A stretch of DNA of 64,000 nucleotides from Pseudomonadota bacterium (GTDB lineage: Bacteria > Desulfobacterota > Desulfobulbia > Desulfobulbales > Desulfocapsaceae): NCBI GenBank assembly GCA_018820855.1, contig JAHJNL010000054.1, positions 1-64,000 on the forward strand, given 5' to 3'. This document shows, in pieces, positions 36,733 to 38,673 of the stretch (position 1 is the stretch's first letter; each line of letters opens with the position of its first letter). The notes beneath the pieces are model-generated. The model was not told where the DNA came from. It made no database searches and worked only from the letters and a program-made list of their open reading frames with translations. The translations under genes were made by a program, and so were the position numbers.

Positions 36733-38673
36733 TTGAGGAGGGTCTTCACTTATAGGAAAATGATGGTCAGGAGATCCCGCCTCAGGACGAAAGATAACAG
36801 AAAACGGCTGGTGCGTGCACTGCTGGTTGTTCTGGTGATATTGGCTGTGATGACAGGGGTTGGGGTTTCCTTGCGGCAGCAGTTACGCACCCTGACTGAG
36901 ATTTGGCAGGAGACCTTTCCGGTAAGTGAACAAGCCGTAGAGAGTGTTCGGGGAACGATTTACGATAGAAATTTCAAAGAACTTGCTCAGACCCTTGAAA
37001 GGGTTTCTCTCTATGCCAGGCCACGAGAAGTGGAAAATCTGCCGGAGACCGCAGGGGCGCTCTCAAGGCTGCTGGGGATACCGGAAACGGAACTTGTACA
37101 ACGCCTGGGCAGAGAGTCTCATCTAGTCTGGCTTCGCCGTGATATCGGCCAGGGAGAGGAAGAGGAGATTCATCGACTGAATTTGCCAGGAATATATCTG
37201 CACCGGGAGTTGGCGAGAAAATATCCGGAACAGGCGGTCGGAGCACATCTGATCGGGTATGCTGAGAATGATATTGGGCTTGCTGGTATTGAGCATTATT
37301 ATAATCATCTGCTCAGCCATGATCATGTCCGACAGGAAGATATACCGACCATTGATCTCAAAGGAGAGGAACAGACCAGCGGTTACAGCCATGATTTGGT
37401 TTTGACTGTTGATATGAAAATCCAGGCCATTCTCGATAAATATGTAACTGATCTGGGAGAGAGTCTGGGGAGTGTGCAAATAGGTTCTCTGCTTCTGGAA
37501 ACAGTTGAAGGGGAAATCATTGCCGGAGCCAATTATCCTTCCTATAATCCAAACACCATCTGGCAGTATGATAATGAGGTGTTGGAGAATATTCTTCTGA
37601 CTCCTTTGGTCATTCCGGAAGAGATCAGGCAATTTTTTCGGGATGCATCGCTACTTCAGGGAGGATGGGAGCAGGGAACCCAGGTCTATCCCTGGAGTCT
37701 GGTTGCAGGAAAAGCAAGTTTTGCCAGGCAGCTTCGGCTCTGGGATCGTCTGCAGCTGACCACAGAACTGAATGTAGACATTTCTGCAGGAAAGGAACAG
37801 AGCCCATCGCTTCCGGAGTTCATTGATTGTGGTCCTGTTGCCGATCTGGGTACGGTTCCGAAAACAGCTGCACCTCTGAAAGTGCTTCTCGGTTTTACCC
37901 ATCTCCTGAACGGTGGCAAGAAAATACAGCCGCACTTTCTTGACCGGGTGCTGGAGAGACCAAGTCAGAAGGAATATTTCTTCGATGCCTTTCAAGGACA
38001 ATTGCGAGGAAGAAACGTCCTGCCTGCCATGGTATCCAGTGAATTGCGAACCTTGCTTCGAGCTCAGGGCAAACCAGGTATCCTCGGCTCAGTCGCACTT
38101 TCCGGGGAAACGCTTTCCAGGGTAGCAAAACCCTCTGGATTCGAGTATGTGCGTGATCGGATGTCACTGATTGCTATACCGGTAGAAAAACCGGAACTGA
38201 TTCTGCTCCTGGTATCCCGGCAAAGGGAGCCGGGTCCGGCGCTGGTTGACGACTCGAATCCGGGATTTCTCTGTAATACCATTGATTCCATCCTCCCTTC
38301 AATGGTGGCACTGCAGCAGGTCAGTCACAGTCTTGCCGGTCTGGTAGAAGCAGCAGAGAAGAAAAATGAGAATTTTAAGTATGAGGGGATGGTCGACGAG
38401 AAAGCATCGAAAAATCTGGCCGGAATGCTGGAGGAGCAGACTCGAATCATGCCGGACCTGACCGGACTCAGTTTGAGAAAGGGCTTGCGGCTTTTGCAGG
38501 GAATTGAGGTGGAGGTACGTGTCGAGGGCTCAGGACGCATTGTTTCCCAGCGGCCAGAGGCTGGAAAGGTTTTGGAAAAGGGTGGGCAATGTCTGTTGAC
38601 CCTGAAAAACGACCCCGCGCCCAAAGAGACTGTGCAGCTCCAGGAGCTGCAACAAGACAATAAGCAAGAATAA
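36733..38673 (+). CDS. FtsI-position class B PBP homologue with PASTA domain, apparently lacking the SxxK, SxN and KTG transpeptidase motifs (start may be ATG 36760)
   Basis: pedestal VESVRGTIYDRNFKELAQTLERVSLYARPREV...LPGIYLHRELARKYPEQAVGAHLIGYAENDIGLAGIEHYYNHLL; LTVDMKIQAILDKYV...GEIIAGANYPSYNPN; C-term PASTA; catalytic motifs not found on reading. Confidence 0.88.
   Translation: MRRVFTYRKMMVRRSRLRTKDNRKRLVRALLVVLVILAVMTGVGVSLRQQLRTLTEIWQETFPVSEQAVESVRGTIYDRNFKELAQTLERVSLYARPREVENLPETAGALSRLLGIPETELVQRLGRESHLVWLRRDIGQGEEEEIHRLNLPGIYLHRELARKYPEQAVGAHLIGYAENDIGLAGIEHYYNHLLSHDHVRQEDIPTIDLKGEEQTSGYSHDLVLTVDMKIQAILDKYVTDLGESLGSVQIGSLLLETVEGEIIAGANYPSYNPNTIWQYDNEVLENILLTPLVIPEEIRQFFRDASLLQGGWEQGTQVYPWSLVAGKASFARQLRLWDRLQLTTELNVDISAGKEQSPSLPEFIDCGPVADLGTVPKTAAPLKVLLGFTHLLNGGKKIQPHFLDRVLERPSQKEYFFDAFQGQLRGRNVLPAMVSSELRTLLRAQGKPGILGSVALSGETLSRVAKPSGFEYVRDRMSLIAIPVEKPELILLLVSRQREPGPALVDDSNPGFLCNTIDSILPSMVALQQVSHSLAGLVEAAEKKNENFKYEGMVDEKASKNLAGMLEEQTRIMPDLTGLSLRKGLRLLQGIEVEVRVEGSGRIVSQRPEAGKVLEKGGQCLLTLKNDPAPKETVQLQELQQDNKQE

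What the first reader, a model, noticed from the sequence alone, without database searches (positions are those of the whole stretch)
36733..38673. Apparently inactive FtsI (pseudo-transpeptidase) at the ftsI position of the dcw cluster
Seen directly: the 646-aa intact ORF between ftsL-like and murEF keeps the class B PBP pedestal (VRGTIYDRNFKELAQ..., LPGIYLHRELARKYPEQAVGAHLIGYAENDIGLAGIEHYYNHLL), the first TP strand region (LTVDMKIQ...GEIIAGANYPSYNPN) and a C-terminal PASTA domain. Only about 95 residues separate NPN from the late TP helix (GTVPKTAAPLKVLLGFTHLLNGG), where active enzymes need roughly twice that and carry SxxK and SxN. I find no SxxK there; the only SxxK in the ORF is SLRK inside PASTA. 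The KTG(T/S) position reads LSRVAKPSGFEYVRD. Knowledge: FtsI/PBP3 is the septal transpeptidase and all three motifs are needed for catalysis. Inference: this is a scaffold-type division protein retained under selection, so septal crosslinking must be done by another enzyme. I know of no description of a catalytically dead FtsI in a dcw cluster.
Basis: partly seen in the sequence, partly recalled or inferred. Interest (0 to 1): 0.82.

Follow-up and report, generated by a model that had tools for sequence, protein, structure and literature searches.

The report
Dead FtsI scaffold, FtsW gone
In this sulfur bacterium and its whole order, the enzyme normally needed to cross-link the new wall between dividing cells has lost its active site and its partner polymerase gene has been deleted, yet the dead protein is kept intact by selection, so these free-living bacteria must build their division wall with another enzyme.

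Summary
The ORF at 36733-38673 (likely start ATG 36763) is an FtsI orthologue in a syntenic dcw cluster. It keeps the membrane anchor, pedestal and PASTA domain but has no SxxK, SxN or KTG in register. It is not strain decay: all 33 FtsI sequences aligned from 13 families of the order (Desulfobulbales) lack SxxK and KTG, and dN/dS is 0.14-0.19 (0.10-0.13 in the transpeptidase remnant). Of 166 order genomes, 159 have exactly one SEDS gene, and all 31 of these proteins that were typed are RodA. In 55 of 58 relatives the only class B PBPs are active MrdA and dead FtsI. Ten further families show the same pairing, down to 248-aa anchor+PASTA remnants. FtsW-containing relatives keep intact FtsI (12/12). 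Most likely this is a non-catalytic divisome scaffold, while RodA-MrdA (favoured) or a class A PBP builds the septum. Absence of ftsW in four Desulfobulbaceae genomes is published (PMC7873302); I found no report of the dead FtsI, the order-wide co-loss or the erosion series. The function is inferred, not shown.

The parts
36763..38673 (+). pseudo-ftsI (ORF from TTG 36733; likely start ATG 36763)
   Evidence: PBP_dimer and PASTA over Pfam cut-off, PF00905 not; syntenic ftsI slot; homologues start at the ATG
36799..36915 (+). membrane-anchor helix, residues 23-61
   Evidence: AF2 model helix H23-61
36931..37377 (+). pedestal (PBP_dimer), residues 67-215
   Evidence: PF03717 1.6e-11; dN/dS 0.11-0.16
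37378..38232 (+). inactive transpeptidase remnant, residues 216-500
   Evidence: alignment to E. coli FtsI; residues 284-500 have dN/dS 0.10-0.13
37615..37632 (+). slot of the catalytic PGSxxK motif, reads PEEIRQ (residues 295-300)
   Evidence: alignment
38122..38133 (+). slot of the KTGT motif, reads VAKP (residues 464-467)
   Evidence: alignment
38443..38610 (+). PASTA domain, residues 571-626
   Evidence: PF03793 1.4e-6
36292..36678 (+). ftsL-like gene
   Evidence: position in the cluster and tblastn matches in three relatives only; no family test made
44300..44312 (+). murD/murG junction where ftsW is missing
   Evidence: murD ends and murG starts at 44306; FtsW-containing relatives and E. 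coli carry ftsW here
34833..51603 (+). dcw cluster mraZ-rsmH-ftsL-ftsI-murEF-mraY-murD-murG-murC-murB-ftsQ-ftsA-ftsZ, without ftsW
   Evidence: ORFs and synteny

Best explanation
The ORF is the true FtsI orthologue turned into a non-catalytic divisome subunit (a pseudo-transpeptidase). Shown: the SxxK, SxN and KTG motifs of PBP catalysis are gone. Shown: it is kept under purifying selection. Shown: its partner polymerase FtsW is absent from the cluster and genome, and the genome's only class B PBP with intact motifs is MrdA, encoded in mreBCD-mrdA-rodA. Inferred: it still sits in the FtsZ-FtsA-FtsQLB divisome through its membrane anchor and pedestal (the FtsL-binding part in known structures), with PASTA contacting new peptidoglycan, and it recruits or licenses a synthase encoded outside the dcw cluster. 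Inferred: that synthase is most likely the only remaining SEDS-bPBP pair, RodA-MrdA, working at the septum as well as the side wall (my estimate 0.5), or a class A PBP (0.35), or both. The event is ancient (before the radiation of Desulfobulbales and several neighbouring lineages) and probably happened a second time in families f33/f58.
For: Motifs absent in 38/38 FtsI of FtsW-lacking genomes, present in 12/12 FtsW-containing ones. ftsW absent at murD-murG in the window and in every FtsW-lacking dcw locus that spans the junction. One SEDS gene in 159/166 order genomes, typed as RodA 31/31 with FtsW|RodA split support 0.999. Two class B PBPs in 55/58 relatives; MrdA motifs intact. dN/dS 0.135-0.185 over the gene. 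The ftsI slot is kept in all ten further FtsW-lacking families even when eroded to 248-643 aa. RodA-MrdA was lost in several FtsW-containing lineages with FtsI active there, but is kept almost without exception where FtsW is gone. Precedents: PBP2B S309A still supports division (PMC5656894); PASTA and structural roles of S. aureus PBP1 (PMC9426605); FtsL binds the FtsI pedestal (PMC7614612); Wolbachia BCD lost FtsW and FtsI but kept RodA and PBP2 (PMC10591338).
Against: No localisation, depletion or interaction data exist for this protein; the divisome role rests on synteny and orthology. PASTA is missing in f36, f37 and f59 and the pedestal in f33 and f58, so no single retained periplasmic domain explains all eroded forms. 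G142 (99% complete) lacks detectable RodA and MrdA, which speaks against RodA-MrdA as the universal septal synthase unless it is a contig gap.
Confidence: 0.75

Rival explanations
1. Class A PBP takeover: a bifunctional PBP, probably the compact conserved one (own genome C31, 634 aa), polymerises and cross-links the septum, as PBP1 does in Clostridioides difficile. Pseudo-FtsI recruits it, and RodA-MrdA serves elongation only.
For: At least one GT51 protein in 41/41 genomes, and a single one in f27, f33, f37, f53, f59, f70 and f71. C. difficile precedent (PMC10693644). G142 has class A PBPs but no detected RodA or MrdA.
Against: Class A PBPs are equally universal in FtsW-containing relatives, so presence does not discriminate; RodA-MrdA is also kept almost without exception in FtsW-lacking genomes.
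Confidence: 0.35
2. Pseudo-FtsI has left cell division and is now a PASTA-type wall sensor or another envelope protein that merely sits in the old gene slot.
For: The membrane anchor plus PASTA is what survives in f33 and f58.
Against: The slot stays within the division operon in all families. PASTA is lost in f36, f37 and f59 while pedestal pieces remain. The pedestal and TP remnant are constrained in the genus.
Confidence: 0.12
3. A decaying pseudogene or assembly error in one strain.
For: One species of another genus (G036) does have the gene split into two frames.
Against: Open ORF in the window and in nearly all relatives across 15 families of the order; dN/dS about 0.15; same state in independent assemblies, two of them represented by few or single contigs.
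Confidence: 0.01
4. A new active site: the protein is still an enzyme using other residues.
For: The TP fold outline persists in the AF2 model and the remnant is constrained.
Against: The invariant and nearly invariant columns of the 59-sequence alignment include no Cys and no Ser-Lys pair in the remnant. The nucleophile slot varies freely across the order (E, G, P, A, T, L).
Confidence: 0.03

Closest known systems
FtsI / PBP3 (septal class B PBP of the FtsWI complex)
   Same: Orthologous position in dcw, anchor-pedestal-TP-PASTA order, sequence match to E. coli FtsI over residues 67-296, fold match to division class B PBPs
   Different: No SxxK, SxN or KTG; no FtsW partner in the genome
Bacillus subtilis PBP2B S309A mutant and S. 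aureus PBP1 TP-dead/PASTA mutants
   Same: Show a structural role of the septal class B PBP separable from catalysis (PMC5656894, PMC9426605)
   Different: Laboratory point mutants in species with FtsW; here a natural, ancient and clade-wide state
Clostridioides difficile divisome
   Same: No canonical FtsW/FtsI pair in vegetative division (PMC10693644)
   Different: There the dcw synthases are repurposed for sporulation, not described as dead, and a class A PBP makes the septum; here ftsW is deleted and FtsI lacks its motifs
Wolbachia supergroups B/C/D
   Same: FtsW and FtsI lost, RodA and PBP2 kept (PMC10591338)
   Different: Reduced endosymbionts that lost the ftsI gene; here free-living bacteria with multi-megabase genomes that keep a dead FtsI
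Cable bacteria / Desulfobulbus cell-division survey (PMC7873302)
   Same: Already reported ftsW absent in four Desulfobulbaceae genomes
   Different: It treats FtsI as present and as the septal synthase; inactivation, order-wide extent and correlation are not mentioned in the passages read

Membership tests
FtsI orthologue (by descent) | Position between rsmH/ftsL and murE in the dcw cluster | tested here: met
FtsI orthologue (by descent) | Anchor, PBP_dimer pedestal, and sequence match to known FtsI | tested here: met
Catalytic FtsI (septal D,D-transpeptidase) | SxxK nucleophile motif | tested here: not met
Catalytic FtsI (septal D,D-transpeptidase) | SxN motif | tested here: not met
Catalytic FtsI (septal D,D-transpeptidase) | KTG(T/S) motif | tested here: not met
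Catalytic FtsI (septal D,D-transpeptidase) | Cognate FtsW in the genome | tested here: not met
   one SEDS only, typed as RodA
Catalytic FtsI (septal D,D-transpeptidase) | Penicillin binding and transpeptidation | not testable with these tools
   needs Bocillin labelling or a lipid II assay
Structural (non-catalytic) divisome subunit | Retained under purifying selection without catalytic motifs | tested here: met
Structural (non-catalytic) divisome subunit | Septal localisation and binding to FtsL/FtsQ | not testable with these tools
   pedestal conserved only; inference from PMC7614612
C. difficile-type divisome | Class A PBP is the septal synthase | tested here: inconclusive
   aPBP present in 41/41 genomes, FtsW-containing or not

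The most novel reading that the evidence does not exclude
A large free-living bacterial clade that divides with FtsZ has had no dedicated septal synthase since before the Desulfobulbales radiated: FtsW was deleted, FtsI became a retained pseudoenzyme adaptor, and the elongation pair RodA-MrdA (or a class A PBP) makes both side wall and septum. The same swap occurred independently in a second lineage, where only the FtsI anchor and PASTA domain survive.
Probability: 0.6. Interest if true: 0.88.

Novelty: new variant of a known kind. Interest (0 to 1): 0.82.

Why it matters
FtsW-FtsI is widely treated as the universal and essential septal wall synthase. A free-living order, including sulfur disproportionators and the relatives of cable bacteria, that lacks FtsW and carries a dead FtsI makes two open questions directly testable: what FtsI does apart from catalysis, and how a divisome drives a synthase that is not FtsWI. 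The erosion series (643 -> 248 aa) is a natural domain-deletion experiment. It also predicts that PBP3-selective beta-lactams have no division target in these bacteria.

Tried and rejected
Frameshift or assembly error: rejected (open ORF and the same state in many independent genomes). Single degraded strain: rejected. Hidden second FtsI elsewhere: rejected for the own genome (only two PBP_dimer proteins, one being MrdA) and 55/58 relatives. Relocated FtsW: rejected (the single SEDS groups with RodA). My first guess that the C31 PF00905 hit was a second class B PBP was wrong; it is a class A PBP. The genome-contig scan found only three close relatives. Megrian et al. 2022 on dcw evolution is not held. 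My first FtsW|RodA split test returned no support because one control locus (L229) is a RodA locus; relabelled. G142 as proof of the class A PBP model: not accepted, a contig gap is possible. A first Pfam scan of the eroded proteins failed on a bad reference and was repeated.

Full report
Observation. The ORF 36733-38673 lies between an ftsL-like gene and a fused murE-murF in the order mraZ-rsmH-ftsL-ftsI-murEF-mraY-murD-murG-murC-murB-ftsQ-ftsA-ftsZ. Pfam sees PBP_dimer (1.6e-11) and PASTA (1.4e-6) but no valid Transpeptidase (10.9 bits, cut-off 22.1). Against PDB sequences, the best match is an FtsI (7onw_A) over residues 67-296 (1.1e-21). With E. coli FtsI (NC_000913) and 12 relatives from FtsW-containing genomes aligned, PGSTVK reads PEEIRQ, SSN reads ARQ and KTGT reads VAKP. 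The distance from NPN to the late helix is 106 residues against 140-144 in active enzymes, so shortened but not halved. The database copy of the protein starts at ATG 36763 (636 aa).

Not strain decay. The protein is found full-length in the genus (one of 23 genomes, 78% complete, has no match; another, 72% complete, has it in pieces) and in the 14 other sampled genera of the family, at 30-44% identity outside the genus (one of those split over two contigs, one over two frames). FtsI from 12 other families of the order also has no PGSxxK or KTG in register, and fragments from two more families show none either. Some retain a ghost of the motif, e.g. PGGIGR or PGELTR where controls have PGSTFK. 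Two of 33 order sequences keep a literal SxN. None of 121 proteins held from the database search (the window's own included) has P[G/A]SxxK or K[T/S]G[T/S/A] in the core. Pairwise dN/dS among the four closest species is 0.135-0.185 over the gene and 0.10-0.13 in residues 284-500, with whole-gene dS 0.65-1.06. The remnant is therefore maintained.

The linked loss. murD ends and murG begins at the same base (44306), where E. coli and FtsW-containing relatives carry ftsW. PF01098 finds one SEDS gene in the own genome, in mreB-mreC-mreD-mrdA-rodA. In 166 genomes of the order, 159 have exactly one. The seven exceptions are two with none (G142, G229), one split gene (G047), and four with extra matches in genomes at 5-8% contamination (G004, G210, G244, G307). 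All 31 order SEDS tested score better with E. coli RodA than FtsW, separate from FtsW with support 0.999, and keep the catalytic Asp. In contrast, most other genomes of the phylum have two SEDS. PBP_dimer gives exactly two class B PBPs in 55 of 58 relatives, MrdA and the dead FtsI; the other three are contaminated or incomplete. The 31 MrdA proteins examined keep SxxK and SCD, and KTG in the 30 where the strict pattern matched.

Correlation outside the order. I examined phylum members with one SEDS. In f17, f28, f32 and G111 the missing pair is RodA-MrdA; FtsW and a motif-intact FtsI remain. In f27, f33, f36, f37, f53, f58, f59, f65, f70 and f71, FtsW is missing and the ftsI slot holds a degraded protein: 643 aa in f27 (PF00905 still 101.8 bits but SxxK and KTG gone), 614, 569, 560, 538, 457, 440/412, 340, 329/299 and 248 aa. 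In f33 and f58 only an anchor and a weak PASTA remain; in f36, f37 and f59 PASTA was not detected. Across all loci read, intact FtsI goes with FtsW and broken FtsI with no FtsW. A tree of five concatenated dcw proteins places f27, six of the other families and the order in one clade (0.967), and f33+f58 elsewhere (clade 1.0), which suggests two independent events. Deep nodes of that tree are weak, and f53 was not in it. Families are unnamed clusters here; the order is called Desulfobulbales because the closest named record is a Desulfocapsa MAG and homologues are labelled Desulfocapsa/Desulfocapsaceae.

Structure. AF2 on a 59-sequence alignment (A1) gives pLDDT 77 and pTM 0.70, with a long N-terminal helix, pedestal, a TP-like region with poorly predicted stretches, and a C-terminal PASTA. 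Foldseek finds division class B PBPs (PBP2x, SpoVD, PBP3) at E down to 1.8e-28 with TM-scores of about 0.4-0.6, as expected for the same fold partly eroded.

Mechanism. Shown: no catalytic motifs, purifying selection, no FtsW, a single intact SEDS-bPBP pair, at least one class A PBP in 41/41 genomes, and FtsZ, FtsA and FtsQ kept. Inferred: pseudo-FtsI stays in the divisome as a structural subunit. In the P. aeruginosa FtsWIQBL structure FtsL binds the FtsI pedestal (PMC7614612). In B. subtilis a PBP2B without catalysis still supports division if PBP3 supplies the chemistry (PMC5656894). In S. aureus, PASTA of PBP1 is essential and binds PG (PMC9426605). The missing chemistry must come from RodA-MrdA or class A PBPs. 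I favour RodA-MrdA because FtsW-lacking lineages keep it almost without exception while FtsW-containing ones have lost it in several families; Wolbachia BCD is a precedent (PMC10591338). C. difficile is the precedent for a class A PBP (PMC10693644), and genome G142, with neither RodA nor MrdA detected, would support it if its gap is real.

Known and new. The absence of ftsW in four Desulfobulbaceae genomes is published (PMC7873302), where FtsI is still named as the septal synthase. I found no report of the FtsI inactivation, of the order-wide and wider pattern, or of the erosion series. The library is open-access only, and the main dcw evolution paper could not be read.

Noticed in passing
window 38734-41838: murE and murF are fused into one 1034-aa ORF. 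The fusion is seen in families f1, f4, f12 and also f59 and f71, not in the other dcw loci compared.
   Followed up: partly
G142 (family f12), L191, L196, L205, L211: A 99%-complete genome with dead FtsI in which neither RodA nor MrdA was found; either a contig gap or loss of the last SEDS-bPBP pair.
   Followed up: partly
L104 (G036), 748 kb region: The ftsI slot is split into 240- and 438-codon frames, a possible recent break of the gene in one species of the family.
   Followed up: no
L149-L153, L215-L219 (f17, f28, f32, G111): The opposite loss: these relatives keep FtsW and active FtsI but have no RodA-MrdA pair.
   Followed up: partly
L232 8358-10169 (-), upstream of mreB in the own genome: A 603-aa ORF with an N-terminal ATPase-like part and a C-terminal region that looks like a DamX/SPOR-type protein by eye; a possible septal PG-binding partner next to the elongation genes. 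No family search made.
   Followed up: no
P0033, P0072, P0084, P0098 and similar database records: Public pipelines name these dead proteins 'FtsI (penicillin-binding protein 3)' or 'penicillin-binding transpeptidase domain-containing protein', so annotation-based surveys would count them as active FtsI.
   Followed up: yes
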